Below are positions 6,725 through 63,376 of a stretch of 64,000 bases of DNA, piece by piece. Position 1 is the stretch's first letter; each line of letters opens with the position of its first letter. A model generated the notes under the pieces. That model was not told the DNA's origin. It did not search any database and worked only from the letters and a program-made list of their open reading frames with translations. This DNA comes from Ischnura elegans (lineage: Eukaryota; Arthropoda; Insecta; Odonata; Coenagrionidae). Both the position numbers and the translations under genes were made by a program. The DNA is taken from NCBI RefSeq assembly GCF_921293095.1, contig NC_060257.1:55898968-55962967 (forward strand), read 5' to 3'.

Positions 6725-6879
6725 AAGTTTTCCTGGTTTTCACACAATTACTGAAAATTACAATTGCTGAAATTTCATCATAATTTGCGCCTGAAGATGA
6801 TGATAATTCATTGAAACCCGGGTCGCGCTCTGTTAAAAAAGAAGTGGTATAAGTAATTGTGTGAAATCCAGGAAAACTT
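6725..6879 (+). mobile_element. 155-bp terminal-inverted-repeat element with hammerhead-like core
   Basis: A 28-bp terminal inverted repeat matches at 27 of 28 positions: the left end begins AAGTTTTCCTGG and the right end is the inverse ending CCAGGAAAACTT. Between the arms lies a hammerhead-like motif at 6787-6828. I infer a small non-autonomous relative of a Penelope-like element, because that class is known to carry hammerhead motifs in its terminal repeats. It encodes no protein. Confidence 0.6.
6787..6828 (+). ncRNA. Hammerhead-ribozyme-like motif (Penelope type)
   Basis: Read on +: stem I strand GCGC (6787-6790); conserved box CTGAAGA (6791-6797, fitting CUGANGA); one extra T; stem II GATGA/TCATT with a TAAT loop (6799-6812, one G-T wobble); GAAA (6813-6816); palindromic stem III ACCCGGGT (6816-6823); cleavage-site C at 6824; and stem I return strand GCGC (6825-6828). 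All core elements are present in order. The very short palindromic stem III is what Penelope-linked hammerheads are known for. Stem II is weak, so activity is uncertain. Confidence 0.55.
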
Positions 6880-7020
6880 AGATTTGTAGCTGTTAGAGGA
6901 AAAATTGCTCTAGCGGCTCCTCTCCTCTCTTGAGGTAAATGGGCTGCGTCCCATCGAAAACTAGAGCTTAATCTATCCCGTTAACTCCATATTTTCATTT
7001 TTTGTTTAGTTTTTTACTAT

Positions 7021-7486
7021 CTAATCAAGTGTTTATGTGTGCCCACCCTATGTCAAGAAGAATTTAGTCATAGAGGGGCAACGTGTAAAGTACTCTCTAG
7101 TCAAGTGTTTTTGTATGCCCACCAGGGGTGCAGCTGGGAATGAAGGCTAGGGGGGGTTTTAGGCACAACTAATACTTACGGGTGTGGGGGGGTATTGCAT
7201 ACCCACCAGGATAAGCAGGAGTTCCAGGGGCCCTCCTCCAGGAAAATTTGAAGAATAATGGTTCATAATGGCGAGTTTTACTGCTTTCTGAGGGATATTT
7301 GATAAATCTCATCACTATTTTATAAGAAATACTGATCCAAAAAAGTAAAATGGATAAAACTTAAAAATTTCTCTGAGCTCTGGGGGGGGGGGGGGGAGGG
7401 TTATATCCCAAAACCCCCCCTCGCTGCGCCACTGGTGCCCACCCTAGGTCAAGAAGAAGTTAGTCATAGAGGGGCAACGTGTAAAG
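7021..7486. repeat. Two-copy 76-bp tandem duplication, second unit split by a MITE
   Basis: Unit 1 (7021-7096) and unit 2 (7097-7122 plus 7443-7486) share CAAGTGTTT, GTCAAGAAGAA and TAGAGGGGCAACGTGTAAAG with a few mismatches. Unit 2 was later split by the hAT-like MITE at 7123-7434. The order of events is therefore tandem duplication, then insertion. Confidence 0.85.
7123..7434. mobile_element. hAT-like MITE (family A, copy 4)
   Basis: Begins CAGGGGTGCAGCTGGGAA and ends CTCGCTGCGCCACTG. The flanks ATGCCCAC (7115-7122) and GTGCCCAC (7435-7442) match at 7 of 8 positions. The typical G-run (about 7382-7400) and AT-rich interior are present. Confidence 0.85.
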
Positions 7487-7489
7487 TTT

Positions 7490-8390
7490 CATGAGTAATC
7501 GCGTGCGCGTGCAGTTAAATTCCTGTCTTTCCTTTATTTTAAGTGGAAACAACAGGTGGTGTTCTACCTGACTTACTTCAAGTCTCATGGGAAACTATGC
7601 TTCAGCTGATGGCGATATATGACGATCGTTCTTTCATTGCATATATATGGTAAGGTGACATGGTCTTATGAGTCTCCGTCTCATCTTATACTTCCAGTTA
7701 TGAGTCGACTCTATCGTATGCCGCGGTGAGGGCTGGTATTTTACCCCTCGCATCATATTGTATTTGGTAATGCACTCAAAGGAAAGAATTACCCTGGATT
7801 CCGTACGGAGCCATCATGAATAATCGCTATTATTTACTCGTGCGGTTAACTCGACCCATCACTCCTGCTCAACGGGCAGTATTTGCTTTCTTGCTTAGGG
7901 ACTAAAAAGGTTTTGAAATGCCGTATAGTACTATCTGTAGAAAGAGGTCGTGTCTTTAGTTAAAAAATCTCTAATGGCTGGACTAAAAAATAACAATATT
8001 CATTTCCAAGAAAATAGTATTTCTCATACCCTCTTTTCATTACCTTTTTTATCTTATTGTTGAGTAAATTCGATGTTTTTCCTACACTAGGGGGAGTAAG
8101 GCAGCCTTCAATCAGGGACCTTGAAGGAGCAGCTTTATTTAAGAATGAAGAATACGTTGACTGTCTTTCATTGGCTCAGTGAAGTGACACAGGAACTCAG
8201 ACTGAAGACTGGAACTAATTACATTAAGTGAGATCTGATGATCTGAATACCCAAGAGTTGAAGATAGAAGAGGAACATTCAGTGTTTGAAGTCTCAAGTA
8301 TTGAAGATAGGCCGTGTGCAGACGTTGACTTTATATTGTTGGATATTTTCTATGTATTTCAATTGTATGTGCCTTTTTGTATTTTTTGAT
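7490..8390. other. Intergenic DNA, nothing recognised
   Basis: No exon, RNA gene or transposon terminus was recognised between the duplication and the minisatellite. Confidence 0.4.
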
Positions 8391-8394
8391 AACC

Positions 8395-10560
8395 GTGATT
8401 TGCTCTGAATGAGAGAATGTGGTGTGTGAATGTGAGAATGTGATATAGTGTGATTGAGAGTTTTTTAAGGTTGATTTTTTTGAGTGAATGAGCTATGTCA
8501 ATTAGTGTGAATGAGATTATTTCATCAGCTGTGAATTACAATGTTATTTTGGGAGAATGAGGACATGTTATTTTGTTTGAAAGACGGCATGCTATTTGGT
8601 GTGAATGTTGGTATTAATTTAAGTGAGTGAAATTACGTATGCAATTTAGTGTGAATGAAATTACGTATGATTTATTGTCTGAATGAGGGCATTCATTTAG
8701 TGTGAATGAAATTACGTATGTTATATAGTGTGAATGAGGGTATTAATTCAGTGTGAATGAAATTACCTATGTTATATAGTGTCAACGAGGGTATTAATTC
8801 AGTGTGAATGAAATGACGTATGCTATATAGTGTGAATGAGGGTATTATTTAGTGTGAATGAAATTACGTATGTTATATAGTGTGAATGATGGTATTAATT
8901 TAGTGTGAGTGAAATTACGTATGTTGTATAGTGTGAATGAGGATATTAATTAAGTGTAAATGAAATTACGTATGTTATATGGTGTGTGACGTATGCTTTA
9001 TTGTCTGAATGAGGATATTAATTCAGTGTGAATGAAATGACGTATGCTATATTGTCAGAATGAGGGCATTCATTTAGTGTGAGTGAAATTACGTATGCTA
9101 CATAGTGTTAATGATGGTATTAATTTAGTGTGAATGAAATTACGTATATTATATAGTGTGAATGAGGATATTAATTCAGTATGAATGAAATTACCTATGT
9201 TATATAGTGTCAACGAGGGTATTAATTCAGTGTGAATGAAATGACGTATGCTATATAGTGTGAATGAGGGTTTTATTTAGTGTGAATGAAATTACGTATG
9301 TTATATAGTGTGAATGATGGTATTAATTTAGTGTGAGTGAAATTACGTATGTTGTATAGTGTGAATGAGGATATTAATTAAGTGTAAATGAAATTACGTA
9401 TGTTATATGGTGTGTGACGTGTGCTTTATTGTCTGAATGAGGATATTAATTCAGTGTGAATGAAATGACGTATGCTATATTGTCAGAATGAGGGCATTCA
9501 TTTAGTGTGAGTGAAATTACGTATGCTACATAGTGTTAATGATGGTATTAATTTAGTGTGAATGAAATTACGTATATTATATAGTGTGAATGAGGATATT
9601 AATTCAGTATGAATGAAATAACCTATGTTATATAGTGTCAACGAGGGTATTAATTCAGTGTGAATGAAATGACGTATGCTATATAGTGTGAATGAGGGTT
9701 TTATTTAGTGTGAATGAAATTACGTATGTTATATAGTGTTAATGATGGTATTAATTTAGTGTGAGTGAAATTACGTATGTTGTATAGTGTGAATGAGGAT
9801 ATCAATTAAGTGTAAATGAAATTACGTATGTTATATGGTGTGAATGAGGTTATTAGTTCACTGTGAATGACATTACGTATGCTTTATTATCTGAATGAGG
9901 GCATTCATTTAGTGTTAATGAAATTACGTATGCTATATAGTGTGGATGAGGGTATTAATTTAGTGTGATTGAAATTACGTATGTTATATGGTGTGAATGA
10001 GGGTATTAATTCAGTGTGAATGAAATTACGTGGAGTGAATGACAGCGTTGTTTTGTGTGAATGAGGAGATGTTATTTAATGTGGGAGATGGTGCGTTATT
10101 AGATGTCAATGAGGATATAAATTTAGTGTGGTTGAGTGAATGATATTTAATGTTAATGAGGGTATGAACTTAGTGCAAATGAGAGTGTTATTTAGCGCGA
10201 ATGAGGGTATTCATTTAGTGTGAATTTTGGTGTGGAGTTTGGTGGTGTATGTGTGGTATTTAGTGTTAATGGGGACACAAATGTGGTGTTAATGAATATG
10301 TATTATTTAGTGCGAACGCTGGTTCATTTAGTGTGAATTTTGGTGTATGTTTAGTGTGAATTAGTGAATGTTATTACTGTGAACATTGGTATAGAATTTT
10401 GTGTGAATGATAGTTTACTATGTAGTGTATATGATGTTATAAATTTAGTGTGAATATGGACATAGGATTTAGTGTGAATGAGACTTAGTTTTGAGTGTGA
10501 ATGCGGGTATGAATTTTGTATTAATGGCAGTGTGATTTAGGGTATTTTATGTTTTGAATA
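8395..10560. repeat. AT-rich minisatellite with 428-bp higher-order period
   Basis: About 2.1 kb of units of roughly 50-55 bp built on TTTAGTGTGAATGA, ATTACGTATG and TTATATAGTG. The diagnostic variant GTCAACGAGG recurs at 8781, 9209 and 9637, exactly 428 bp apart each time, and the flanking variant units repeat in the same order. A block of about eight units was therefore amplified as a higher-order repeat. The edges (before about 8630 and after about 10020) are more degenerate. The array is non-coding. Confidence 0.92.
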
Positions 10561-11814
10561 TGTAGTACTGGTGTTTTTATTGCATTTTATTTTTTCATTT
10601 CTGAACGGTAGATGCAGTGCTCTTCATTTTATCGTAGACCTTTGGTAGTGTAGAGTAGTGCATGTCCCCCTCAAATCCAACTGCGTCCTCAACGTGGAGA
10701 GGGGGTGTAACAGCGGACAGTCATGTTTAAATGAGGTTGCGAATAAAATGCATAAAAAATCCTCCATTTCATTCAGCGGTTTTCTGCCTAATATCTTTCA
10801 CAGTATTAGTGGAGTACTTGGAGCGAATGCAAAAACGTAAATGTTTTCAAAATATAAAACTGGTTAATTAATTTCCACGCATGACTTTCCGCTGGCTAAT
10901 GCAGTTGGTGATGTAAGTGCATTTATCGTAATGTATATGAATTTATTTTCATATGTCATTGTTCTCATTGACTCTGTTTTCATCTCAAGTGGTGTCTGTT
11001 TTTTTTAATCATAACTTTTTAATTCTTGTTGCGAAATCTGCCTGTACTAATTCATTTGTCAATTTCATCTGCAATAAATTCTATTTTTATTACAATGAGC
11101 GCCTTGATATTTCCGATAAAGTTGCATGATGCACCTTTTTTAACTTTAAGCATCATCTCAGGCCATGTGCTATTGCGAGAAATTCAAATTCAAAACACTC
11201 ATGTATAATATTTATGACATAAATAAAAATTTCATTTTTATTATATGTTAAAATGTGCATATAGCTATTTTCGGTAAAATTTAATCATGCAACCACAAAT
11301 AAATGGCAAACTTAATTAATGTACTCATATGATAAAAAAATAATTTGAAATGCATATTTCTTTTCTCTGTCCCTGCCAAATCCAATTTATTTGGTATATA
11401 TCACTTTAAGTGTTTTCCTAATCATTATTAATAAAATTCAAATAACCAATTTTTACTATCTTCACACGGTACTTCCATTTTTCTATTTCTTATTAATATT
11501 CAACTTTTTTCATAATTTGACCTTCAAAAAATGTTGTTCTTTATATTTTGAAATGTTATAATTGTTTCACTGAATATATTTAACCCTTAATTTTTATTCG
11601 ATTATATTATACTTTACTCTTCGAAGTAAAAACTTGAAATTACATTTTATTTTATGGGCCTCCTAAAACCAATGTAGTTTTTAATGCAATTGACGACATT
11701 TCCTTACTTTTTTAATAAAGAAACATTTCACAACCTAGCCTATCTCTAAATATCTCCCTGGTTAATCTACTACTGTAGAAAAATGGTTAATAGCTTATTT
11801 TATTAGTTATTTGA
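10561..11814. other. AT-rich spacer inside the minisatellite zone
   Basis: It separates the main array from its degenerate outlier. Short + frames at 10658 and 11026 show no motif or splice support, so I do not call genes. Confidence 0.4.
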
Positions 11815-12380
11815 GGGTATACATATGTATATTTTGAGTGGTGGTATGTAATTTAATGTGAATGATGTGATCGAGATTTACAATGTAAATGAGGGTATCT
11901 AATCTAGTTTGAATAATGGTATGTATTTACTGTGAATGAGAGTGGGCATTAAATTGTTGTGAAATATGGTGTAAATTAGTGTAAGTTAGATTATGTTGTT
12001 AAATGTGATTTAAGGAATTTTATTTAGTGTGATGTTTTGTATGTTTTTATTTTAAATGAGAGCAAATATTCGTTAGTTTGTAGAGAGCATGTTGTTTAGT
12101 TTTAATATAAGTATGTAATTTAAGGTGAATGAAAGATTGGTTTGCTGCGATTGGGTGTACGTAATTTACTGTGACTTTTTATTTGAGTATGACATTTTTT
12201 GTCTTAAGAATGTTGTTTTATGACAATATGTCATTTAGTGGTTTCTATTTTTTTAACAATAGCTTAGTAATTCTTGTCGTGAAATCAATTATTTGGGTAT
12301 GTTATTGATGGGCATTTGTAAATGTTTTTTAGGGCTAATAATGTATGTAATTTAATGTGCATGTGGGAATTTTCAAATTT
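11815..12380. repeat. Degenerate outlier of the TTTAGTGTGAATG minisatellite
   Basis: Scattered matches to the same core (TTTAATGTGAATGA, TTTACTGTGAATGAG, TTTAGTGTGATG) without a clear period. This suggests an old, decayed part of the array, split off by the AT-rich spacer. Confidence 0.55.
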
Positions 12381-12549: not shown

Positions 12550-12855
12550 ATCGTGTTGTTGTGGTTGCTACAGTGTTGGCTTCCCACCCCTTGGGCTCGG
12601 GTTCAAATCCCGGCTGTGGCAGAGAATTTACAGAGACTACCCGATCCCTGCTTGAATGCTGTGTGGAGGACATTTCAAGCGCAACACTCCGTCCGTCGGA
12701 TGGGACGTTAAGCCGTGGTCCCCTTGGCGCCTTTCGTTTAGAGCAGGCTAACGCCGACGCCGGGTTTCTCTCCACCCTTCCTTCCACACCCTTCCCTCAT
12801 GGCGCAAATGACCTTTGACGTCGGTCGCCTCCTCCAAATAACATACCGTACCAAC
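12550..12855 (+). mobile_element. tRNA-derived SINE (copy 1)
   Basis: A polymerase III box B-like motif, GGTTCAAATCC (12600-12610), lies about 50 bp from the 5' end, downstream of a box A-like TGGTTGCTACAGTG. The body and 3' tail (ACATACCGTACCA) match the copy at 13525-13799 in inverse orientation. The flanks ATGCTTCTGAGGG (12537-12549) and ATGCCTCGGAGGG (12856-12868) match at 11 of 13, an aged target duplication. The two long open frames across it (both strands) have no coding meaning. Confidence 0.8.
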
Positions 12856-12963
12856 ATGCCTCGGAGGGCTAAAGAGGTGCTTGGATGGTATGCGGATTGC
12901 CTGTACAGATATTTTTTTTGTCAATTCGCGCCATTTTGGAAGCCAAACATTATATCGGCTATA

Positions 12964-13191
12964 TAGGCCTGGTTACACGATACATAAACACGTACGGGTT
13001 AATGTATAAATGTATGAACGCGAGAATGAACGCTAAAATGCACCGCGTAAACCACCCAACTTGTGCGAATGCATGCGCAGAAAGTTGAACCTGATCGAAT
13101 TTGGTTCATGCATTCGTGTATGTTCCGTTCCGGTCCACCAAAATCATTCACATTAACTTGTACGTGTTAATGTACCGTGTAACCAAGCCTT
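12964..13191. mobile_element. 228-bp MITE with GGTTACACG termini
   Basis: About 40-bp terminal inverted repeats: the left contains GGCCTGGTTACACGATACAT and the right is the inverse of GGCTTGGTTACACGGTACAT, with a few mismatches. The interior has CATGCATTCG-type motifs also seen in family F. The layout resembles the PIF/Harbinger-like family C here (GCCTGAATCACACGATCAT), but the sequence differs and the target duplication is unclear. Confidence 0.65.
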
Positions 13192-13524
13192 TTATTTCGC
13201 TTAAATAATGCTGAATATTTAAATTAATCGTTGATCATTTACATACATGATAATTGCATCGAAACATGCGCCACGAGTGTGCCCTGAGTTTTTTTGCAGA
13301 TGTATGTTGCCTTTCGTGAACTTATTGAGGAGGAAATGTTTTTTTTAATTGTATCAGTGTTCTTTTCTGCTGTTTATTTGAGTATCAATGTTCGTCAAAG
13401 TAAGCTAAGTCAGTGTGAGGCAAGAATGTCACTACGTTTAAACGTTAAAAAAATGCACCCGGTGACGATAAAATTTCTTCATGATTCCACCAATATTTAC
13501 TACCGTTACCCTTTCACGAAAAGG

Positions 13525-13799
13525 TATGGTATAGTATTTGGAGGAGGCAACCGACAGCTGAGGTCAAGGGTGGAGAGAAACCTGGCGTCGGCGTTAGCCT
13601 GCTCTTAACGAAAGGCACCAAGGGGACCACGGCTTAACGTCCCATCCGACGGACGGAGTTTTGCGCTTGAAATGTCCTCCACACAACATTAAAGCAGGGA
13701 TCGGGCAGTCTCTGAAAATTCTCTGCCACTGCCGAGATTTGAACCCGAGCCCGCCGGATGGGAAGGCAACACTCTAGCCACCACACCAACCTGATTCAC
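13525..13799 (-). mobile_element. tRNA-derived SINE (copy 2)
   Basis: Antisense copy of the SINE at 12550. Box B reads as the complement of GATTTGAACCC (about 13736-13746). The flanks TTCACGAAAAGG (13513-13524) and TTTACGAAAAGG (13800-13811) match at 11 of 12, a convincing target duplication. The 3' tail (at the left) is ATACTATACCATACC-like. Confidence 0.82.
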
Positions 13800-18990: not shown

Positions 18991-19095
18991 AATCCCCGTC
19001 AGAAATACATGAGTTTCCGTGAAGTAAAATCTGATGCTTTCCCGGCGAATATGTTCAAAAAAGGCTATTCGGGCTTCCAGCCGGGTGGTCTCCCT

Positions 19096-19149
19096 CCATT
19101 CTGCCGACGTTTCGAAACACGAGTCGGGTTCCATCCTCAGGGCTAATGG
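19096..19149 (-). ncRNA. Hammerhead ribozyme motif, sense copy at the element's 3' end
   Basis: Same architecture as the copy at 19637-19690 but on the minus strand, the coding strand of the element. Stem I, the CTGAGGA box, stem II GGAAC/GTTTC (one G-T wobble), GAAA and the cleavage triplet GTC are all present. One base in stem II differs from the other copy. Confidence 0.65.
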
Positions 19150-19182
19150 TGAGTGGATGAAGTTTGCCAGCTTGTTTACTTT

Positions 19183-19571
19183 TCAGTTGGTTGTGAGGTC
19201 TAACGTGATTGGCTCGGAGGCAGCCAATCTTATTTTCTTAAGTGCCGGTTTCCATGCATTACTCAGTGAATACCCTGTGTCACGATTGAGGGTGTTAGTT
19301 GCCAGCCGGATCTCGATGGATTCCTTAACCAGTCTTTTCCAGAAATCCGTCTCGCGGCATAGAATTTTCACGTCATCCCACTTTACCCTATGATCGGATT
19401 CAATGGCGTGTTCTACAACCGCGGATTTTTCCGGTTGGCAGAGCCTAAGGTGTCTCTTATGTTCTTTTATCCTTGTATTGATAGTTCTCCCCGTTTCCCC
19501 CACGTAAACCTGCCCACACTCACAAGGAATTTGGTAGACCCCTGGAGTTTCAAAACCACAAGGATCCTCCG
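19183..19571 (-). pseudogene. GIY-YIG endonuclease domain of a Penelope-like element
   Basis: The minus-strand frame encodes GVYQIPCECGQVYVGETG, the GIY...YIG core as GVY...YVG, followed by RTINTRIKEH (the conserved Arg and the ExH-type helix region) and a later SAVVEHAIESDH. In this retroelement class the domain nicks target DNA and follows the reverse transcriptase, which is absent here. The open frame extends to an ATG at 19701, but that N-terminal part is the antisense of the inverted terminal repeat. I therefore place the genuine endonuclease coding region from about 19571 down. The stop at 19183 lies in the other terminal repeat. Confidence 0.82.
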
Positions 19572-19636
19572 AGCCAATCACGTTAGACCTCACAACCAAC
19601 TGAAAAGTAAACAAGCTGGCAAACTTCATCCACTCA

Positions 19637-19690
19637 CCATTAGCCCTGAGGATGGAACCCGACTCGTGTTCCGAAACGTCGGCAGAATGG
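19637..19690 (+). ncRNA. Hammerhead ribozyme motif, inverted 5' copy
   Basis: On the + strand: stem I 5' strand CCATTAGCC (19637-19645); CTGAGGA box (19646-19652); one extra T; stem II GGAAC/GTTCC (19654-19658 and 19668-19672); GAAA (19673-19676); GTC ending at 19680 (predicted cleavage); and stem I 3' strand GGCAGAATGG. GCC pairs with GGC and CCATT with AATGG. An extra base after the CUGANGA box is documented in some natural hammerheads. It could self-cleave any transcript reading rightward toward the gene at 20020. Confidence 0.68.
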
Positions 19691-19960
19691 AGGGAGACCA
19701 CCCGGCTGGAAGCCCGAATAGCCTTTTTTGAACATGAGTTTCCGTGTTTACCGTCAGTTATTACGCCATAGTAGCGGTGTCTGTTGGAAGATTCTTTTTA
19801 ACTCACATGCCGGCTATTGTTAAAGCGGAGGATTAAGGAGATAATCCCGTCTAGTCATCTCAGCTGATTGGAGATGACCCGGCCGATTCTCCCATCAATC
19901 ACCAGTTCATTATCGCCACAAAAGATTCTATCTCGACCATGCACACAGCCGCCGAGGGGG

Positions 19961-20361: not shown

Positions 20362-20499
20362 AGGAATAGAAGGATCAACAAATTTGCTGTTTCCACATAG
20401 CAATTTATTAACACCGACCATGGTTTCGTTAAGAAACCATGATCGGTGTTAATAAATTACTATGTGGAAACAGCAAAGTTGTTGATCCTTCTATTCCTG
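20362..20499. repeat. Long hairpin in intron 1 of the MAM-mucin gene
   Basis: Two arms of about 66 bp (about 20362-20427 and 20434-20499) are inverse copies with three or so mismatches around a tiny loop (GGTTTC-gttaa-GAAACC). The left arm starts AGGAATAGAAGGATC. The hairpin begins only about 70 bp after the exon 1 donor, so it would fold in the pre-mRNA. No transposon termini or target duplication were found. Confidence 0.85.
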
Positions 20500-21655
20500 C
20501 GATCACGGATTGCCACCAAGTTACGTCCGCTACGATTAATTATATTAAAAGGGGGAATCCATTAATTTTCGTGAATCGTTTATGGGAGTTAGGGGGTCAA
20601 GCCGATTCTCACCCAATCTCACTTGGGGGAGAGTCGTGGCAGTATCACGTAATTTTTTTCCGCAAGAATCAGCGTAAAATCTTAAATCAGCGATCTTAGC
20701 AATCTTATATACTACTCTTAACTAATCTTACATAAAAATTAATTAAACTCTTTTATAAATCCAGCGCAACGAAGCATAGATTAACGTATTTACACTGAAA
20801 ATACGCATTTTAAACAACATCACGTGAGATTGGAGGGAGGGTTTAGAATCTCACGATTTCTCACTACGGGGAAAGAGAGGGTCCAAAAATCGTCAAAATC
20901 ACCTGACGTAATAAATTGACTGACCTAATTAACTGCATAGGCCTAATTAACAGAAGTTTAAGTTTGCTCCTCTTTGCAATTTTTATCCACTTATAAACCA
21001 AGATACACTTAATTTCAGAAGTTTTAGGACGAAATTAGTAGTTTTGAATACTTTTTCCTAAACCTCTAGCTTTAAGGATTGTTTTTTTTTTTAGTTTTTC
21101 TTCTAAGGAAACTGTCGCCACACAATCTCCATCCATATTAGAGGACATAAAAGGGACATCCGCAGGATGAATCAAGTAATCTCGTGAGAGATAAACTTCC
21201 ATGAAACGTATATAAGTTCGAGATTCGCTGTGAGGATTAATTTAGAAATATAGTGATGGTATGCATAGGGGTATAGAAACAAGCGTCATCATTAAGTGAT
21301 ATTATTGACGAATTGTACTATTAACTGACCAAAACGTAAAATTGCGTGGCCATATAAAGTAAATTCCAAAATATTTCAATGTTGTAGTGATATAATATAT
21401 CTAAAACTTATTTTTTCAATCCCTATTAATAGATATTCCAAAATTATTGTTCTTATCGATTGCTCAAACGAAAATAGTCGGCGGATAAAAGCTAAATTCG
21501 CTACTTGCTGCTCCCTCATAGTTCTATTTTAGTGATTTCTGGAAACGAAAACTGTCTGTAATTTGCAGTAATTACAAAAAAGCTATTCCCAGTCACTTCA
21601 TTATTAAATTTTACAGTTAATTGTCATCACTTTCAGTTGGAAATAATAATTGTAT
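20500..21655. other. Intron 1 of the MAM-mucin gene, proximal part
   Basis: AT-rich intronic sequence. A + frame at 20439-20699 overlaps the hairpin and has no motif. No further exon with a matching phase was found. Confidence 0.5.
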
Positions 21656-21659
21656 TGAA

Positions 21660-21840
21660 ATGAAATGTAGTTGCACTTTTCCAAAATAATTTAAGAAGTA
21701 CGACGCGATTCGAGTCATAGGACATTTTGTATCAGACGATTTCGGCTCAAAGAGCCATTATCTGGTACAAAATGACATTATGATTCAAAATGCGTCCTAG
21801 GCATTAAATTATTGTGGAAAAGTGCATATACCTTTCATTT
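21660..21840 (-). mobile_element. Inverted-repeat cassette with degenerate hammerhead motif
   Basis: Imperfect outer arms (TTGCACTTTTCCAAAATAAT and the inverse of ATTATTGTGGAAAAGTGCA) enclose an inner pair (ACATTTTGTATCAGA and its near inverse). At the centre, on the minus strand, are stem II GGCTC-TTT-GAGCC and GAAATCGTC, as in Penelope-type hammerheads. The box reads CAGATAA instead of CUGANGA, two core changes, so it should be inactive. It lies in intron 1 of the MAM-mucin gene. Confidence 0.6.
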
Positions 21841-22622
21841 CACTATGCCGAACTTCCACTATATTACGCCTGAATCGGTTGAACTTATGATTATTGTTAC
21901 GGTCGAAAATTTTCGAAATATTTCATAATATTCATTCACTTATACTTTACGAGTATATTAATCAGATGTTTAGTAGGACTAAATAGTCAATGAAATGAGA
22001 AGACTAGGTTAAAAAACTACACACATTACTACAAGATTTACTATAATATATAATCCGTTATTTATTTCTTTTCTGTGATTATTACTCTTTTTTGCCGTGG
22101 ATCATATGCATGCACAATGTTGCACATGTATATGAATTACATTTAGATTATATTTTAAATAAAATTAACCACATGTAGCTCAAATTATTCGAATCCTTTA
22201 CCAATCTTGTGCCTTTAATGATGAAGATCGTATGATTTATCCAAAAAAATTCCAAATGCAATTTTTTATGTTAATATTTTTTTCTTATTTTCCATATGCT
22301 CCTTTTCGAAAATTCTGTTTAACACTTGAAAATTATAGTCATGAATGTTCCAACCTATTGACCTAAGTCCATAAAATAATAGGTTATATATTCGATGAAC
22401 ATTTTTTACAAAATTAAAAGCAGCAGTAATCGTATTTGTAATCCTACTGATTGCTTTTTAAATAGTAATTTCTGATTGCAATCAATTACAAATTTGTCAA
22501 TTTAATTACAGCTGAGCCCGATTACATTTCTTCCATACTTTTCCCATCACTGATTACAATCAGCAGTGACAAAATATTGGTGAACGATTGTCCTTAGCCA
22601 CTTAGACTCCTTTAGATAAAAT

Positions 22623-22757
22623 TTTCTCGGGTTTGGCACCGGATGAGACTGTTTAAGGCCCAAAGGCAGTCAGCCTCAACCCTGTTGGCGATGAGAGAGT
22701 TACTCATCGAAACGTTGGCCTTAAACAGCCTTACCTGATACTGAATCCGAGAATATT
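22623..22757. repeat. Inverted repeat enclosing a broken hammerhead-like motif
   Basis: The arms TTCTCGGGTTTGGCACCGG... and ...CTGATACTGAATCCGAGAA are inverse copies, with a perfect inner 12-bp pair CTGTTTAAGGCC/GGCCTTAAACAG. Inside is GATGAG-loop-CTCATC followed by GAAACGTT, as in a hammerhead stem II plus GAAA. The CUGANGA box is not where it should be: about 29 bases separate stem I from stem II. It is a relic or variant. Confidence 0.55.
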
Positions 22758-23001
22758 GTACCTATACTATTCTCCAGGAAAGCCTAATATCTTATATTGC
22801 TTTAGCTTTGCCCAATGCGATGATTCTTACGATGTAGATTAAATGAAAACCCGAAGGTTGCCATCCACACTTCATGAGTTGGGGATATCATTACAATTTT
22901 TTCCCATTTACTCGATCAGGAATAACGTTTCGCTGCGTGAATTAACCGGTAGCATGAGTTTGAACAACAAAAAACACACGAGGCCCACTAGGCCGAGGAG
23001 T

Positions 23002-23399: not shown

Positions 23400-23540
23400 A
23401 ATTTCTTATGTGAACGCTGGCCTTAAACAGCTTTACCCGGTGCCAAACAAGAGAATATTTTATCCGTGGTATTCGCTGGGAAAGGCTAGAATATTAGATT
23501 CCTTTATCATCGCCACCTGCGTTGATTCTTACGATATTTT
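23400..23540. repeat. Diverged copy of the 22725-22840 segment
   Basis: This stretch and 22725-22840 share GGCCTTAAACAG, CGAGAATATT/AGAGAATATT, a CTCCAGGAAAGCC/CGCTGGGAAAGGC block and the final GATTCTTACGAT in the same order. It is a direct repeat about 680 bp apart. The second copy abuts the 3' splice site of exon 2. Confidence 0.6.
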
Positions 23541-25705: not shown

Positions 25706-27017
25706 GTTAGACCTGTCAACAATCAGTTTTGAAAACGAACCATAATGGATTTTTCCAAACCTCCCCATGTTCAATTTTACCCATTACCTCCCTGAAAACC
25801 TTCTGCTTGAGATTGTGAAGATGTTTAGGTACGTTGCTCCTATGATCGTCTTTATAATCTAATGATTTATTTTGGTGATACTTTGGGTCCTTCACGCTCT
25901 TTGTCCCTTTCGAATCCTTTCTTCAATGATGCCTTTTGTTTACATGTGACGTGGGCGTCTCTATTTCTTACCTGGAAACCTTGCCCCCTACCCATAACTG
26001 AATAAAACCTTCTGCCTGTTATCGGACAACTCTCGGCGGCCGGACTGTAATTAGTTTAATGATTTCAAAATCCTGTGAAAGAATATTTTTGTATAAACTT
26101 GACCTATATTCATGTCTATTTTTGTTTTTCCGTTCGATTTCGTTCTTGGAACTCGTATTAAATATTTGAGAGATGTATTAATGATAACAACAGTTTTTCT
26201 ACTGAGGGAAAAATGGTATTTTTTCATTAGTTTCAAAACTGGGATTGATCAAAAGAAATTTTTTTTGATAACGAGCATTGCACTAAATGGAGACAAGGGA
26301 ACGGTACGCTTAGCCGCAATCGGCTGCCCCATTTATCCTGAAGCTTTTCGTAAATATGCATGAATGGACGCTGAAATGAAATGAAGACGTTATCATGGAT
26401 TAAAAATTTTTGTTTGAACGAATAATGCCAGGATTCTTACATTTTCGTTCTTTTATCTGTTATAAAGGCTACAATTATGAAAGTACTTAATTTATGTTCA
26501 TTAATCTGATATTCTGAGAGCTGATTAAAATCAATGCATATTTATTTGTTAGCCCCACGCAATCATATTACTTCAACTGCTCCGAGAGATACAATAAAAG
26601 ATAATTGGTGGTCAGGATTAGTTCAATTGATGTAAATAATCTTTTTTCTAGCGTATTAAAATTGCACATGTTTACGTAATTATTAGGCAAATACCACCAA
26701 AATTTGGATCGTTAAAACGACTTTTTGTTCATATTTACCGGAGAAATTTCAAGGTAATTACTTGATTAGGTTCTGTTCTTGTTAATTTGGCATGATTAAG
26801 CGACTGCTCCTTATATTATGTGGCACGCAACCGAACTCAACAGTGACAAATGATACCATAAAATAATTTAAGGCAGACTATTTCATAATATGGCCATTCC
26901 ACGAAAAACGAGTCAAGCAACAAAATATGTGCGTTTGATAAATGAGATTTTGTCGTTTACATTCACAAAAGTATTGAACTTTCAATGACTGCATTATCAT
27001 TTTTTCTGTATTTAAAG
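25706..27017. other. Distal part of intron 2 of the MAM-mucin gene
   Basis: AT-rich intron with no recognised element. It ends at the acceptor TTTTTTCTGTATTTAAAG (27017). Confidence 0.55.
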
Positions 27018-32153: not shown

Positions 32154-33040
32154 ATCAATCATAATTAATCAGAATGAACCTACTATTATTAGGATTAAAA
32201 GCAATATTAAGATAAGAAGAGTTAAATAAAGTATTGATATTCTTTTTATGCAAAATATCGAGTGGAAAAGGATTTATTCTCGTGAGATTCTTCCCAATCT
32301 TCACCTATCTTTTGTCCACCACTCTATTCCTAGTTTTTATAGTTTCTATCATAACAGCGAGAACATGGAGCTGCTCTTTCAGCTACGGAATCAGCTGATA
32401 ATTGTAATACTATGGTAAAAAATATGCGTCATGACCTGGATGGTTAGCACTATTCTCTCAGGAAACAAAAACTTCAGAAATATTTCTTCAGTCTGTAATA
32501 TTAGTTCATTGCCACGGATCTAATGTGTCTCTATTATTACCGGCTGAGAAATGATACATAAGTTGAGAAAAAAAACATAAGGTTAAAAATGCTATGAAAA
32601 TGTCATTAAACTAATGACGCAGTCCCCCCTACTTTATAACAGGTTATAATGAATACAGGTTACTCGACACGGCTACATTGAAATCATCACATGTGATTCC
32701 ACTAGTTTTTATTCAAGAAGAAGGTTCAAGCGCATGGAAAACTATCTAGCTTTCGCAACAGCCTTGAAAGCGCTGGCTTGTTATATATTCTGGAATATAT
32801 CAAAGGAAGTTGAATATGCTGCTTAAATTCTAAATCCTCCACGATAGAGATTATTTCAAATCTTCATATGAGCCGAAAGAAAATAAAATATTGCCTTGAG
32901 TAGGTACAAAAAACTAGTTTTCAATGCCGATACAGAAAAGTGAACATTTTTAAAGCTATCCCCTGGGTGACAATGACAATATTTTATGGAAAACAAAATA
33001 ATAAACTTTTAAATAATATATTTAACTATTTATATATAAA
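32154..33040. other. AT-rich intergenic DNA, nothing recognised
   Basis: No exon, RNA gene or transposon end was seen. Confidence 0.4.
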
Positions 33041-33044
33041 CTAA

Positions 33045-33115
33045 AAGCGCGACTCGGATTTCATAGCATAGTTACATCTTCAGGTGATCCCAACTGCGTT
33101 ATGAAACACGGGTCG
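33045..33115 (-). repeat. Inverted-repeat cassette with hammerhead-like motif
   Basis: The arms AAAGCGCGACTCGGATTTCA and the inverse of TGAAACACGGGTCGTGATTT face each other across about 30 bp. On the minus strand the order is CTGAAGA box (about 33076-33082), extra T, weak stem II ending CTAT, GAAA, TCCGAGTC and GCGC. Stem I pairing is poor and stem II has a mismatch, so it is a decayed Penelope-type hammerhead. Confidence 0.5.
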
Positions 33116-33284
33116 TGATTTTTTTTAATATTTTAGTGAGCCTTACAAATTTTATTCTTATATTTTCCATTATGGAAAGGTTTCACACAGATAAGCCATA
33201 AGTCATCGGCTAAACAATATTTTATAATTTAAAATACTGAACTACACAGGGGAAAGCGAGTACCATAAGATAGGAATGATGTAA

Positions 33285-39688: not shown

Positions 39689-39698
39689 ATTCAACTAT

Positions 39699-39818
39699 AA
39701 TGCACAAAGGGTAAGGAAAAAAGACATCGCTGCTCCACAAAATAAAATATATATTTGCGACCGGTTTCGATACGGCGTATCATCATCAGGTCATCTGACC
39801 TTACCCTTTTTGCATCAT
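39699..39818 (-). mobile_element. 120-bp inverted-repeat cassette with near-consensus hammerhead core
   Basis: Terminal repeats ATGCACAAAGGGTAAGG and the inverse of CCTTACCCTTTTTGCAT (15 of 17) enclose a minus-strand hammerhead-like motif. It follows the fold-back element by only 10 bp. It has no coding capacity. Confidence 0.6.
39755..39795 (-). ncRNA. Hammerhead-like motif with consensus core
   Basis: Minus strand: CTGATGA box (complement of 39782-39788), extra T, stem II GATAC-GCC-GTATC, GAAA, palindromic stem III ACCGGT, cleavage-site C, then GCAAAT. Core, stem II and stem III are perfect. Stem I pairs poorly, so cleavage in isolation is uncertain. Confidence 0.6.
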
Positions 39819-39819
39819 G

Positions 39820-40600
39820 AAGGAGTTCCACTATGATACGCCACCCACTATCGCATTTATCCACTATGATGATTACAGCACCTGCGTTTTGCTTGGTATT
39901 CACCTCTAAAGTATTTGATGAAGATACGATGGGAATAACTAATTTGAATGCTTTTAGATGGCCTTTCTCGCAATAATATTCACCTTCATATTATATTTAT
40001 GCTAATTAATATACATAAATATCCGAGAATTGGCTACAATATCGCATTTATGAGCCAGTAGATATAGAAGACTAAAGTATAAGGATAATCACATTCAAGA
40101 ATGAACAGAATAAATGTGTTATACCATAAATGAAAACGTGAACGAGTCAAACGCATGCAAACTACCTACTTTTTATAAATTAAGTCCCTTAGAACATAGG
40201 TCATAGTTGTCCACTATTTCCAGTCATAAAAATGCAAGGTTCCTCTAAAAGTAACCATTAATCTCAATTGATTCCTCCGTTTTCCGTCATACGATTTCAT
40301 TAACATCATTTTGAATTCGTGGTCAATTTTCTCAGACATTTTTTCTATTGCGTTGCCAATGATCACTAGAGTTTGACAACAAGTCGGATCGTAATCATTT
40401 CAATACATATAATGTATGCATAAAACCGATTACAGAACGCCACGCCTATTTTATGCGTGATTGAATGGGTATTGATGCAGTTCAATACGATTTTTTTATT
40501 TGAACGACCGAATGTCGTCTAGTTAAATTCAATAAAAACTCTTGAGCAAATTTGGTGTTGATTATAGGCTTACACGACCATTAAGACAACAGTTTGACTT
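39820..40600. other. AT-rich intergenic DNA, nothing recognised
   Basis: No exon, RNA gene or element end was seen. Confidence 0.4.
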
Positions 40601-51689: not shown

Positions 51690-52130
51690 ACTGATTATGA
51701 GTAGCCGAGTTTCTGGTAACGGTTACGCTTCATTTAATTTTCTTGTAGTCTCTACAAAAAATGAGTTTTTTTTTCTTATTTTCTTTTCTTGACCTCTTAT
51801 CAAATGGTAAACTCGCTTTCGCTCGCCAGAAATTCGCTTTGTGGCCTGCGGCAGTTTTTGGTCACACCCTATGACGCAAAACCGTATTTGCCTCCGTTGT
51901 AGACATAATAATTCACGAAATAGTGAAAATGCTCTACAATTTCGTCCCAACTGTAATCATTCATTTAAATACCCTATACCTACAAATGACATCCACGAGA
52001 TTGCACTGCACTTTACCAGTACCGGATACAGAAAAAACTCAAATTTACTTTTATTGTAATGAAAAGTTATCAATATAAAACACGGTCTCCAGCGTTACTT
52101 TGTGGAACTGCTTCATCATAAATAAAATAA
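51690..52130. other. Intergenic DNA, nothing recognised
   Basis: Short frames on both strands lack motifs. Confidence 0.35.
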
Positions 52131-52136
52131 AAATAT

Positions 52137-52268
52137 ACTTTGTTCTATCCCACACTTTATTTTAAATAGTACGACCTGGGTTTCTGCATACCATGCTATC
52201 ATCAGGTAGCATGATATGCTGAAACCCGGGTCATACTATTTAAAATAAAGTGTGGAATAGAACAAAGT
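52137..52268 (-). mobile_element. Near-perfect 130-bp palindrome with hammerhead-like core
   Basis: Arms of about 62 bp (52137-52198 and 52206-52267, about five mismatches) meet at the loop TCATCAG. On the minus strand the loop supplies the CTGATGA box, followed by stem II with GCAT/ATGC, GAAA, stem III ACC-CA-GGT and cleavage-site C (about 52165-52205). The opposite strand lacks the box. Stem I is only about 3 bp. Confidence 0.65.
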
Positions 52269-52274
52269 TTACTT

Positions 52275-53090
52275 ATATTTATACTTAAATTTTTATTTTA
52301 TTTTATGAAAAATTATCAAGTCACATGCAAAGTTTTATTCAAGCTGATTTTACACATATACAAGACAATGCTACCTTATTATATAAAATAGTTACAATTG
52401 CTGTTCCGAAATGTTAGACTATACGGGCGGCCCTGCAAGGGGGGCCGCAAATACCCCCCCCCCCCTTGTAACCGCCACTGAACTTAACATACCACGCATG
52501 AGGAGTGGTATAGTCGCGCCAAAGAATTAATATCGGGGCAAAGAAGGTAGAAAGCTGAACTTTAAGCATTTTTACGAAATTCTGCCGAAGCTCCATAGGG
52601 TCTCCATTGCTTGTAAAATATCATTTTACCCATTTCTTATTTGACTACAACAATGAATCATTAAACAATGTTTAAACGAAAACGTTTACCATCTACGGTC
52701 GAAAGAGTGAAGAAGAACACGCGAAAATCTATGAAAACGACGAAACGGTCGTCCTGTTCATCTCGTCACGGACACAATATTTGATTGGTACATTTCATTG
52801 TGTTTTTATATAGAGAGAACGACATCGTCGCATTAAAAATAGCGTTTTAAAATTAAATTTGACCCATTATTTGAATTTTTGCAATGTCCGAAATTTGGAA
52901 TTCAATTTCCGAGGCGTAGAAAAGTACATGAATATCGAAGTTACGTATATTAAATGGAAAACAAATATCCAAACTTTAAACTTGAATAAATTTTGATATT
53001 GTTCCTCTTACATAAAATGAACCACAAAAACTAAAATCACCCCGCGGCAATGCACGCAACCAAAATGGCGATTTCGAATCATCGTCGTTA
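52275..53090. other. Intergenic DNA, nothing recognised
   Basis: 52430-52490 (GGGCGGCCCTG... CCGCCACTG) is a worn MITE end. Nothing else was recognised. Confidence 0.4.
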
Positions 53091-60030: not shown

Positions 60031-60033
60031 TTT

Positions 60034-60275: not shown

Positions 60276-60635
60276 ATTAATACCCTATCAAACGAAGGAA
60301 ACTCTCTTACCAAAGACAATTTTAATAGGTGATTGTTAAGGGATGTTTCCCGGAGCTCTGTTCCTCATGTATACACTGGTAATCTCAGATGATATAAAAC
60401 TCCTATATACTCGTATAGCATCTAGGTCCCTGTGACGTCACGTGGAGTGGCATCGCATCGGTGCCAATCTGGCCTTATTCAAATGAGGTTAAAATTGACC
60501 ATTGACATTCGTCTAAACAGGTATTTCTAAAAATCAAATAAATTGTAAACATATTATGAATGCACCAAAGGTGATTAACGAATCGCAATCAATACCTTTC
60601 GTTTTCTTTGATGAAGGAAATTACCCTATTTGGCT
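60276..60635. mobile_element. Family D-related MITE (outer half of the fold-back)
   Basis: It matches 39340-39688: CCTATCAAACGAAGGAAACT, GTCCCTGTGACGTCACGTG, GGTTAAAATTGACCATTG and TTTCTTTGATGAAGGAAA. It carries only the outer arm part, so this segment can exist apart from the 1.4-kb fold-back. Confidence 0.78.
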
Positions 60636-60639
60636 AGTT

Positions 60640-61190
60640 TAACATGTGTTAAATGCAAAATTTTGATATTAGGCAAGGATATACTCACATGTTCTACAAA
60701 GGACTTTTTTGAATTTACTTGCCACAATTGAAATATCTCAGGTTTTAGTTTGTGGCATAATTTTTGACCAATTCTTACAACTCTATCAGATGGCCTCTAC
60801 TCATGACCAGTTGCAGTGAACAACCATCTATGACTTTCTTCCTGTTTAAGACCTTTCCGCAAGTCAAATATCTTAAATCCGTTTTTTTTTATTAGCAGCT
60901 GACTTTATTAAAATATGTATGATTTATTTCTCCATATGATATCTTTTTACACTATTATTCTTTTATATGATTCATCTTAAGAAAAGCATGTGCAGTGTCA
61001 TGTGAGAAATCATCTGAAGTCCCTGCATACCTTAGTATATTCCATACAGGTATATATTGATATCTGTACTTTTTGCCAGCGATAGGGTTGTTCTTAATCT
61101 GGAAGAATCACGCTCCAATTCTCGGAAAAGTCAAAATGAAACATCAATGCCACACCAATTAGTGTAACCAACTTCTCTTTTTGAATAGCT
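60640..61190. other. CRAL-TRIO gene intron, nothing recognised
   Basis: No feature was recognised. Confidence 0.35.
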
Positions 61191-61197
61191 TCCCTTT

Positions 61198-62323
61198 CTA
61201 TTTTACGGATATAGTGGTGATACTCACATTTCTTGGTTCAATCCTAAACTTTAGCAATGAATTTGTCTGAATGAATTTTTTGTCTGAATGATTCTCAATG
61301 GCAGTGAACACATCTTGCTGATTAAGAGTTACACAAGAACAATCTTTATCATCATCCAAGTAAATGAGAGCACAATATTGATTGAGCACTATGAGGAAGA
61401 GGATCCCAACAGTATACATCAGCATTGGCCCATATTCCTAGTTGATTTTTAGCTTAGCATGATATGTCAATTGTATGTTTGGTTGAAACTGGAAAAGTAG
61501 CCATATTATGTTGTTTAGATTAACTTGTGGAAAAGAATGATAAAATTTGGACATGGTCACTCATAGACATTTCACTCTCTCTTCTTCAAAAGCTGCTGAG
61601 ACATTATTTTACCATGAGGTACATATTTGACATTTATCACTTTCATTAAGTATGTTAATTCTTGCCTAATATTAAACTTGCATTTTACACATGTTAACAA
61701 GCTCAATTTAGACAAAATAATAATTAGGTGAAAGGAGCACCTGTACATGGCATCAACATTTTCATGTCTTGGTAGTTAATAGACACGGGAAAACTATAGC
61801 TCTCTCTGTAATCCACACAATCAAAGAGGCTGTGACATGACTTCATCGTGTGCTTCCGAAAAACCTGGTGAATTTCTAAAATCACTGCAGTGTGTTTAGA
61901 AGAGAATGGCATTAGTGTCTTGCTTATACATTCACAAGGTCCATCGAATTGTTCCACATGGCCCAAAGTAGAAGACTTATGTAAAGTGCCATTGAAAAAT
62001 ACTCTGTGCAAATTGCGACTCATTCACCGTTTCCAGCCAGTAGCAGTGGGTGTTTGCACACATTGGATGCCATGGAAGTAAACAAGATTGAACTTGCTTT
62101 CACTCAATAGATGTAACCAATCATTCAGATATGAACTTTTCACTGTTATGAATGCTAAGTAGAATGAAACGTCATTTTTTATCCCCTTGAAGGTATGCAA
62201 TCTTGGTGTAAAAGAGTCGAAAACATGCCTAACTTTGATATGCCTTAAAACAAAAAGTATAAAAATACTACCTTTTTTTATTTTTTTAATTGAAAGCAGA
62301 ACATTTAAACTACCCCCTGACAA
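61198..62323 (-). pseudogene. Unknown antisense open region, possibly a decayed gene or transposon
   Basis: Three minus-strand frames lie in the CRAL-TRIO intron. The frames at 62024-62323 and 61724-62023 are the same reading frame, separated by one TGA (62024-62026). Together they give about 200 residues of protein-like composition, with several Cys and His in the second half. A third frame (61198-61425) starts with a hydrophobic stretch (MLMYTVGILFLIVLNQYCAL) and continues acidic and Cys-containing. I recognise no family. The GC content is a little higher than the flanks. It could be a disrupted host-like gene, a transposase relic or chance. Confidence 0.3.
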
Positions 62324-62329
62324 ATTTTA

Positions 62330-63310
62330 AAGAAAATAAAAGGTGGCCTTTTTTAGTAATAAATTGTTAAATAATGACTAATTTTTATTGTTTAAACAAG
62401 TCCTTTTTGTTTATTATTGCTTCAAATGACTTTCAAGTTATGCCATAATGTGCATAAATGATTTCTCTTCAAAATGAAACAATAACCACTGCATTACAGG
62501 CCATGGTTCCTTAGTAATCAGCATTTATGTGATTTTTCATTTTTAACTCTGAGGCCTGACACTGCAATGTTCAAAGGACGGTAACTTTATGACGGTTCAG
62601 TTCTGAGCTGAGATAAAGGCATCATTATTCATCATAAGGATACAGCTTTCACATATATAAATTTCAGAGAAATCGGTGATGGTCACCTGACACCCCTCTG
62701 CCTGATTTGAGATGAAATCCCCCATCTGTTCATTTGCACTAACTGTTCTTACTAACAAATTTTTAGCTGGGTAATACCATAAGGACAGGGGTGAGACACC
62801 TATAGGTACCTAAAAGGACCATTATGTCATTTTGACAGGATTCACGTATTGTAATTATGGACCACTTTCTGAAAACACTGAGAAATAAATTCGAGAAGTA
62901 TTACATTTAGCTCCATTTAAATTTTTTTGGGATCAACTTGCAACGATTTATTTCATGTCAATGGCGCTTGGTAAACATAATATGGAAGTATTTCATACAA
63001 ATCCTTCAGTTTCGTACTTCCAATTACGGAGAAATAAGTCGTCAAAACTTTTATAGTGCCAAGGGTGAAGAAAACGAGTGGATTTTCTTCATGCTAGCAG
63101 GATAAATGATAGATAAAAATGCTGAAGCGTAACTGAAAGATATTAAGCGTAGATATATAAAGCAAAAAATATAAAAATTATATCGTGGAGGGAAGAAAAC
63201 TGATTTCTACAAATAAATATGGCAAGGAGGCAATATGACATGTGCTACTGGCCGTTCGGGCAGGTTTCATCGCAGAGAAATAAAATGTAAATGAGTCAAT
63301 TTTCCCCGAA
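62330..63310. other. CRAL-TRIO gene intron, nothing recognised
   Basis: No feature was recognised. Confidence 0.35.
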
Positions 63311-63316
63311 TGGTTC

Positions 63317-63376
63317 AATCTCACGATCGGTTTCATTAACATTATTAAAAATCTATTGAAACCGGTCGTGAGACGT
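63317..63376. repeat. Inverted GAAACCGGTCGTGAGA pair, hammerhead remnant
   Basis: TCTCACGATCGGTTTCATTAA and TTGAAACCGGTCGTGAGAC face each other across about 16 bp. Each resembles the GAAA-stem III-C-stem I part of the Penelope-type hammerheads, but no CUGANGA box or stem II remains. Confidence 0.5.

What the first reader, a model, noticed from the sequence alone, without database searches (positions are those of the whole stretch)
6725..63376. Recurrent inverted-repeat cassettes built around Penelope-type hammerhead motifs
At least seven places (6725-6879, 19022-19731, 21660-21840, 33045-33115, 39699-39818, 52137-52268, and weaker 22623-22757 and 63317-63376) combine an inverted repeat with a stem II hairpin, GAAA and a short palindromic stem III. 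Five of the first six have a CUGANGA box at the right place. At least five share the same extra T between that box and stem II. Penelope-like elements are known to carry hammerheads in terminal repeats. What looks unusual is the short (about 70-180 bp) protein-free form, each with its own flanking inverted repeat and with different arm sequences. They may be a class of tiny non-autonomous ribozyme elements.
Basis: partly seen in the sequence, partly recalled or inferred. Interest (0 to 1): 0.8.

Follow-up and report, generated by a model that had tools for sequence, protein, structure and literature searches.

The report
Two-armed Penelope retroelement insertions with hammerheads
The repeated small palindromes are insertions of Penelope-like retroelements, each made of two short copies back to back; the ribozyme motif is a known passenger, but the way the two ends differ says something about how these elements insert.

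Summary
Five of the six main places carry a hammerhead core with the extra T; a covariance model built from other copies finds three at E 4e-13 to 6e-7, two at 0.01 and 0.13, the 19-kb one only at 0.77. Two core patterns have 2050 and 3908 exact matches in the genome, against 1 and 0 for the reversed patterns.

They are not a class of tiny ribozyme elements. They are insertions of several Penelope-like (PLE) families; one has a reverse-transcriptase match. Each is two copies, head to head, usually 5'-truncated. One outer end has the known PLE 'tail' of about 40 bp, the other lacks it: so in 58 of 62 fetched insertions with both outer ends found. The other four show no clear tail at either end; none shows two tails. 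In family A, 28 of 32 flanks share a word of at least 8 bp. Inner ends vary; a 120-bp copy lacks the hammerhead.

PLEs, their hammerheads, inverted pLTRs and a one-sided tail are published. The near-strict one-of-each rule I did not find in print.

The parts
6671..6682 (.). left target-site repeat, 12 bp
   Evidence: AGATGTGTAGCT versus right copy AGATTTGTAGCT, 11 of 12 identical (locus L031)
6683..6880 (+). family E PLE insertion: tail-bearing arm from the left end to 6752, no-tail arm 6777-6880
   Evidence: BLAST to a single-copy family reference: 6685-6752 reversed with the tail, 6777-6880 forward ending at the pLTR end
6784..6832 (+). minimal type I hammerhead
   Evidence: CM 56.6 bits, E 3.7e-13
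6881..6892 (.). right target-site repeat
19008..19021 (.). left target-site repeat, 14 bp exact
   Evidence: CATGAGTTTCCGTG on both sides, read by eye
19022..19732 (-). PLE insertion with long arms; the minus-strand arm holds the endonuclease end and, at the left, a tail of about 30 bp (by eye)
   Evidence: arms 170 nt, 99%; GIY-YIG PF01541 E 6.4e-5, over its cut-off, in the minus-strand frame 19183-19797, which runs past the insertion's right end
19098..19147 (-). hammerhead of the left arm
   Evidence: core at 19140-; CM only E 2.8
19639..19688 (+). hammerhead of the right arm
   Evidence: core at 19646+; CM only E 0.77
19733..19746 (.). right target-site repeat
   Evidence: by eye
21653..21888 (-). 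decayed PLE insertion, limits approximate; tail at the right starts at 21845 (MPNFHYITPESVEL), no-tail end at the left
   Evidence: IR 67 nt 79%; tail reading frame; CM E 0.01 for the decayed hammerhead at 21771-21730
32986..33212 (-). decayed PLE insertion, limits approximate; tail at the right from 33172 (MERFHTDKP, read by eye), no-tail end at the left
   Evidence: core at 33083-; CM E 0.13 at 33090-33043
39697..39860 (-). family D PLE insertion: no-tail end left, tail end right, short right arm
   Evidence: BLAST to a family D copy: 39697-39770 and 39800-39858, E 9e-19 and 6e-15; flank repeat CAACTATAATG/CCACTATGATG, 9 of 11, by eye, which overlaps the left limit
39751..39796 (-). minimal hammerhead
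   Evidence: CM E 5.8e-7
52059..52073 (.). left target-site repeat, 15 bp
   Evidence: ATGAAAAGTTATCAA versus ATGAAAAATTATCAA at 52305-52319, 14 of 15, by eye
52074..52304 (-). family F PLE insertion: tail end left (MMKQFHKVTLETV, minus strand), no-tail end right, arms nearly symmetrical
   Evidence: tail frame; BLAST to a family F copy E 6e-21 for the tail arm and 0.001 for 23 nt of the other; IR 74 nt 89%
52165..52212 (-). minimal hammerhead
   Evidence: CM E 9e-8
22604..22773 (+). inverted repeat with a GAAACGTT core, possibly a decayed PLE of the 19-kb type; unproven
   Evidence: IR 57 nt 72%, with a further inverted copy at 23419-23464; no CM match
63317..63376 (+). short inverted repeat that resembles the hammerhead 3' half; unproven
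   Evidence: GAAACCGATC in one arm, GAAACCGGTC in the other; CM E 2.2

Best explanation
Each cassette is one insertion event of a Penelope-like retroelement. The element's RNA has two reverse-transcription start sites about 40 nt apart near the start of its ORF. The target is cut with a stagger of about 12 bp. One cut strand primes a cDNA at the downstream start (T, which leaves the tail), the other primes a cDNA at the upstream start (P, no tail). Both cDNAs run towards the RNA 5' end, usually stop early, and are joined in the middle. The product is two copies, head to head, with the hammerhead near the junction because it lies only about 45 to 120 nt upstream of the start sites. Shown here: end structure, the near-strict one-of-each rule, flank repeats, variable inner ends, a relative with reverse transcriptase. 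Inferred: two cDNAs from two strands, use of one RNA source, and that the many tiny copies come from starts near the 5' end of the RNA.
For: Outer-end pattern of family A: 406+403 places, control 0+0. In three listings of the first 100 places each, neighbours within 4 kb are '-' then '+' in 30 of 30, 19 of 19 and 14 of 16 (the other two '++'); never '+' then '-'. Family A: 32 two-ended insertions, each with one tail end (reference 923-929) and one no-tail end (885-899); 31 by BLAST, L062 by its flank repeat; L090/L091 adds one. Family E: 13 of 17 by BLAST. Families B, C, D, F: 12 of 12 with both ends found, of 13 loci. No insertion with two tails was seen. Flanks: 28 of 32 share an exact word of at least 8 bp, against 2% of 9283 mismatched pairs. 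In 23 of 32 (19 by more than 10 nt, 9 by more than 50) the no-tail arm reaches further inward than the tail arm, so that arm is not a copy of the tail arm; and the tail arm holds about 40 nt that the other lacks. L051 carries RVT_1 (PF00078), over its cut-off. Inner ends: 13 of 33 fall in a 56-nt zone at or just upstream of the hammerhead in 19 insertions chosen by outer end only (zone chosen after seeing the data). The two arms' inner ends lie closer than permuted (median 22 versus 57 nt, 0 of 20000; without three doubtful rows 22 versus 50, 15 of 20000). Arms of one insertion differ less than arms of different ones (0.84% in 23 pairs versus 1.73% in 1153, no significance test). An Anolis PLE protein cuts and extends both strands from internal RNA starts in vitro (PMC11167929, abstract and main text read).
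Against: By BLAST alone, four old family-E insertions (L036a, L041, L049b, L050) have no tail at either end; by eye L036a and L041 show a decayed tail on one side, the other two stay open. In L005, L063 and L070 the no-tail end stops about 10 to 30 nt short of P. In L015 and L069 the second outer end was not found. Ten family-A loci (five of them copies of one duplicated stretch) and four family-E loci showed one arm only in the stretch fetched. Many of the 32 were picked as close pairs, so their lengths are biased. PMC11167929 reports no difference in start site between top and bottom strands in vitro. The RNA 5' end was never observed. The GIY-YIG match in L051 is below Pfam's cut-off (17.3 of 22.6 bits), and its first ORF piece has no Pfam match.
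Confidence: 0.82

Rival explanations
1. Self-priming: a single cDNA folds back and copies itself, giving the palindrome (proposed for rotifer PLEs, on an antisense template).
For: Inner ends of the two arms are correlated and several junctions are near-palindromic; PMC3846280 argues for it (Discussion read).
Against: The tail arm holds about 40 nt that the other lacks, and in 23 of 32 (19 by more than 10 nt) the no-tail arm holds inward sequence that the tail arm lacks. For the other 9, copying of the no-tail arm from the tail arm stays possible in principle.
Confidence: 0.12
2. A distinct class of tiny non-autonomous ribozyme elements that multiply as units, perhaps retrozyme-like.
For: Discrete copies with flank repeats; thousands of cores; retrozymes of about 170-400 nt with hammerheads are known in animals (PMC7229834, parts 2 and 3 of 6 read).
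Against: Inner junctions differ between copies; one copy of 120 bp lacks the hammerhead; neighbours are head to head, with '++' in 2 of 65; family A includes a copy of 3.2 kb with reverse transcriptase. Cores without stem III are thought to act as tandem dimers (as cited in PMC7761336), which one core per strand would not give within one transcript (inference).
Confidence: 0.05
3. MITE-like DNA transposons with terminal inverted repeats.
For: Short, inverted repeats, flank repeats mostly of one size.
Against: The two ends differ: one has the tail, the other not (58 of 62 with both ends found); a copy with the same arms codes for reverse transcriptase.
Confidence: 0.01

Closest known systems
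Penelope-like elements with inverted pLTR and tail (Adineta vaga Pen families, PMC3846280; Anolis PAc, PMC11167929)
   Same: RT and GIY-YIG, pLTR, tail of 30-40 bp optionally on one inverted pLTR, target repeats (8, 9 and 10 bp in the passages read), head-to-head copies, hammerhead close to the ORF start
   Different: Here a great many copies in several families, many very short (19 of 30 close family-A pairs have under 250 nt between pattern starts), target repeat mostly 12 bp; one tail end and one no-tail end in 58 of 62. In Anolis the hammerhead overlaps the ORF start; in family A it ends about 45 nt before P
Minimal type I hammerheads of PLEs (Cervera and de la Pena 2014; Lunse et al. 2017; both seen only as cited in PMC7761336)
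   Same: No stem III beyond a palindrome ACCGGT or ACCCGGGT, short stems I and II, PLE location
   Different: An unpaired T before stem II in 2050 ACCGGT cores against 54 with another base; I could not check whether the published variants have it
L1 twin priming (PMC2837659, start of abstract seen; details recalled)
   Same: Two cDNAs primed from both cut strands, opposite orientation, target repeats
   Different: Here it is the usual structure, and both cDNAs start within about 40 nt of each other, so the arms overlap
Animal retrozymes (PMC7229834)
   Same: Short, protein-free, type I hammerhead
   Different: Tandem repeats with canonical hammerheads there; head-to-head copies with minimal hammerheads here

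Membership tests
Penelope-like elements | RT domain of the element | tested here: met
   PF00078 E 2.5e-7, over its cut-off, in L051 of family A; not looked for in families B to F
Penelope-like elements | GIY-YIG endonuclease | tested here: met
   PF01541 over its cut-off at 19183-19797- in the window (6.4e-5); below cut-off in L051 (0.0059)
Penelope-like elements | pLTR with optional tail at the ORF start, head-to-head partner, target repeat | tested here: met
Penelope-like elements | place in an RT phylogeny | not tested
   no tree was built
Minimal type I hammerhead | CUGANGA ... GAAA ... UH core with paired stems I and II | tested here: met
   14 rows: 79% of cells paired against 18-52% when slid; cells paired and covariation score reached by 0 of 500 shuffles; but pairs with both-side changes (6 of 9; 155 of 500) and further pair types (457 of 500) do not stand out
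Minimal type I hammerhead | Rfam hammerhead score | tested here: not met
   no match in the window; RF00008 not found in the genome, but that search rang in none of its controls. Rfam models expect a stem III (recalled)
Minimal type I hammerhead | self-cleavage | not testable with these tools
   needs a bench test
Animal retrozyme | tandem (same-orientation) units with canonical hammerhead | tested here: not met
   '++' neighbours in 0 of 30, 0 of 19 and 2 of 16
Animal retrozyme | circular RNA | not testable with these tools
   no RNA data
MITE | identical terminal inverted repeats | tested here: not met
   tail on one end only in 58 of 62

The most novel reading that the evidence does not exclude
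PLE insertion is normally two-sided and asymmetric: an insertion uses both start sites of the RNA, one per target strand, so the RNP works as an asymmetric pair; and the many tiny ribozyme-bearing palindromes are run-off copies of the RNA leader, made when the pair starts at the 5'-proximal copy of the start sites.
Probability: 0.47. Interest if true: 0.62.

Novelty: new member of a known kind. Interest (0 to 1): 0.42.

Why it matters
How PLEs insert is an open question. One genome with hundreds of similar, cleanly bounded copies (809 outer ends of one family) lets rival schemes be told apart by counting ends. The pairing of one tail end with one no-tail end argues against fold-back copying as the general rule and points to an asymmetric pair of reverse transcriptases, which can be tested with the purified Anolis protein. 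It may also explain why animal genomes hold many scattered minimal hammerheads: they would be parts of short PLE insertions.

Tried and rejected
Rfam at gathering and at E up to 10: no hammerhead. RF00008 in the whole genome: nothing, and no control rang, so uninformative. Random fragments: rejected by recurrent outer ends and flank repeats. Hammerhead cleavage as the maker of the inner ends: only 2 of 64 inner ends lie within 3 nt of the cut site. Retrozyme, MITE and self-priming: see rivals. L049a was dropped as a mis-pairing (two arms of the same strand). L015 was left out of the 32 because its right arm stops inside the reference. The comparison of arms used 26 of the 32 insertions, the six more divergent ones left out; 23 had enough overlap. 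Papers by Cervera 2014, Craig 2021 and Lunse 2017 are not held. Passages of PMC12910113 on Penelope in Drosophila virilis gave nothing on this structure.
Full report
What is there. A pattern scan of the window finds six hammerhead-like cores with the same extra T: 6791+, 19646+, 19140-, 33083-, 39789- and 52205- (it also lists six looser chance-like matches without a palindromic stem III). They lie inside or beside inverted repeats (for 6.7, 19 and 52 kb; by eye for 33 and 39.7 kb). At 21.66 kb the inverted repeat is clear but the box is decayed. Rfam gives nothing. A covariance model built from 14 copies elsewhere in the genome scores 6784 at E 3.7e-13, 52212- at 9e-8, 39796- at 5.8e-7, 21771- at 0.01, 33090- at 0.13 and 19639+ at 0.77 (E-values rough). 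In those 14 rows 79% of pair cells are standard pairs, against 18 to 52% when the 3' partner is slid; cells paired and covariation score are reached by 0 of 500 shuffles, while the number of pairs with changes on both sides (6 of 9) and of further pair types are not unusual.

Genome scale. The window lies in contig C12 of a 1.72-Gb genome. The ACCGGT core pattern has 2050 matches against 1 for the reversed pattern; the ACCCGGGT pattern has 3908 against 0. Only 54 ACCGGT cores have another base in place of the extra T. In 26 distinct cores of the fetched loci, stem II closes with at least 3 bp in 20 when the T is left unpaired and in none when it is paired. So the extra T is a real, unpaired feature of these cores. 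Whether published PLE hammerheads share it I could not check.

Arrangement. In the first 100 places listed by each of three searches, neighbours within 4 kb are '-' then '+' in 30 of 30 (outer-end pattern), 19 of 19 (ACCGGT cores) and 14 of 16 (ACCCGGGT cores; two '++'); '+' then '-' does not occur. Where cores have a close neighbour, it is thus nearly always head to head. One family-A pair, L051, is a Penelope-like element: 891-nt arms at 99.2% identity, a reverse-transcriptase match over Pfam's cut-off, and a GIY-YIG match below it. The 19-kb place in the window has a GIY-YIG match over the cut-off.

Ends. Against a 929-nt piece of a single copy (hammerhead core from 810, no-tail end P at 887, tail end T at 929), 32 two-ended family-A insertions were measured. 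Each has one T end and one P end: 31 by BLAST, L062 by the place of its flank repeat. L090/L091 is a further one. In L015 the second outer end was not found. In family E, 13 of 17 are T/P by BLAST. The other four (L036a, L041, L049b, L050) have no tail at either end by BLAST; L036a and L041 show a decayed tail on one side by eye, L049b and L050 stay open. In families B, C, D and F (names mine), 12 of 13 loci have both ends and all 12 are T/P; L069 has one. In L005, L063 and L070 the no-tail end stops about 10 to 30 nt short of P. That makes 58 of 62 with both ends found; none has two tails. One-armed in the stretch fetched: ten family-A loci (L007-L011, which are copies of one duplicated stretch, L023, L026, L028, L094, L097) and four family-E loci (L037, L045, L047, L048). 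In the window the same structure is seen at 6.7 kb (it is L031 of family E), 19, 21.7, 33, 39.7 and 52 kb. The tails at 21.7, 33, 39.7 and 52 kb read as the start of a PLE ORF (MPNFHYITPESVEL and MMKQFHKVTLETV by script, MERFHTDKP and MKEFHYDTPPTIAF by eye).

Target repeats. In 28 of 32 family-A insertions the two flanks share an exact word of at least 8 bp, most often 12; mismatched flanks do so in 2% of 9283 trials. In the window: 6671-6682/6881-6892 (11 of 12), 19008-19021/19733-19746 (14 of 14), 52059-52073/52305-52319 (14 of 15), and a weaker one at 39.7 kb (9 of 11); the last three were read by eye. At 21.7 and 33 kb no clear repeat was established.

Inner ends. They range from beyond the reference to within 6 nt of P. 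The shortest insertion, L095, is 120 bp and has no hammerhead. In 19 insertions picked by outer end only, 13 of 33 inner ends fall in 756-811, at or just upstream of the hammerhead (p 7e-9 against a uniform spread of the 29 inside the reference; the zone was chosen after seeing the data). L004, L016, L063 and L066 of families B, C and D join within a few nt of the 5' edge of the core (by eye). The hammerhead cut site is not a preferred inner end (2 of 64 within 3 nt). My reading is that cDNAs often run off the RNA 5' end, which would lie near the hammerhead; this is inference.

One arm is not a copy of the other. The tail arm has about 40 nt that the other lacks. In 23 of 32 the no-tail arm reaches further inward (19 by more than 10 nt, 9 by more than 50), in 6 the tail arm does, in 3 they are equal (L052 and L056 are in several pieces, so their values are doubtful). 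Fold-back copying, suggested for rotifer PLEs (PMC3846280, passages and Discussion read), therefore cannot be the general rule. Yet the inner ends of one insertion are closer to each other than permuted (median 22 versus 57 nt, 0 of 20000; 22 versus 50, 15 of 20000, without L051, L052 and L056), and arms of one insertion are more alike than arms of different ones (0.84% versus 1.73%), with some variants shared by the two arms. This fits two cDNAs made from one RNA, or from sister RNAs of one source.

Mechanism. Frangieh et al. (PMC11167929, abstract and main text read) show that an Anolis PLE protein cuts and extends both target strands, starting at two adjacent internal RNA sites that match the genomic ends with and without tail. 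They saw no strand difference in start site. The genomic record here shows one of each in 58 of 62. The simplest account is a pair of reverse transcriptases acting on the two cut strands, one at each site. Joining of the two cDNAs then gives the head-to-head product.

Relation to the literature. The hammerhead type, the inverted pLTR, the tail on one of the inverted pLTRs, target repeats and solo pLTRs are all described (PMC3846280; PMC7761336 passages; PMC6155905 passages). Retrozymes (PMC7229834, two of six parts read) are the nearest short ribozyme elements but are tandem and canonical. I found no paper stating the one-of-each rule in seven searches of an open-access library; of those lists I opened only the papers named in this report, and three central papers are not held. 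The finding is therefore a known kind, with a countable regularity that may be new.

Noticed in passing
window 38386-39563: Nested inverted repeats (I3, I4, I5, I8) form a foldback of about 1.2 kb, ending about 130 bp before the 39.7-kb PLE insertion.
   Followed up: no
window 12550-13795: Inverted repeat with 230-nt arms at 91%, 786 nt apart; perhaps a DNA transposon or its remnant.
   Followed up: no
window 20362-20498: Near-perfect hairpin, 66-nt arms at 95%; the MIR6274 score there is below that family's cut-off and probably reflects only the hairpin.
   Followed up: no
window 8643-10031: Tandem array (51-nt unit, higher-order period 428) in a stretch with strong strand asymmetry: GC skew +0.38 over 8001-12000.
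   Followed up: partly
window 26946-29429 (+): 827-aa reading frame with repeats of a Thr/Pro/Ser-rich unit, mucin-like.
   Followed up: no
L007-L011 (C1:11.53-11.86 Mb): Five family-A copies with near-identical printed flanks, 54 to 122 kb apart, so probably a segmental duplication that carries one PLE insertion.
   Followed up: no
L067 and L065: Copies with repeats of the CTGATGATG segment at the junction, as if the joining step had stuttered.
   Followed up: no
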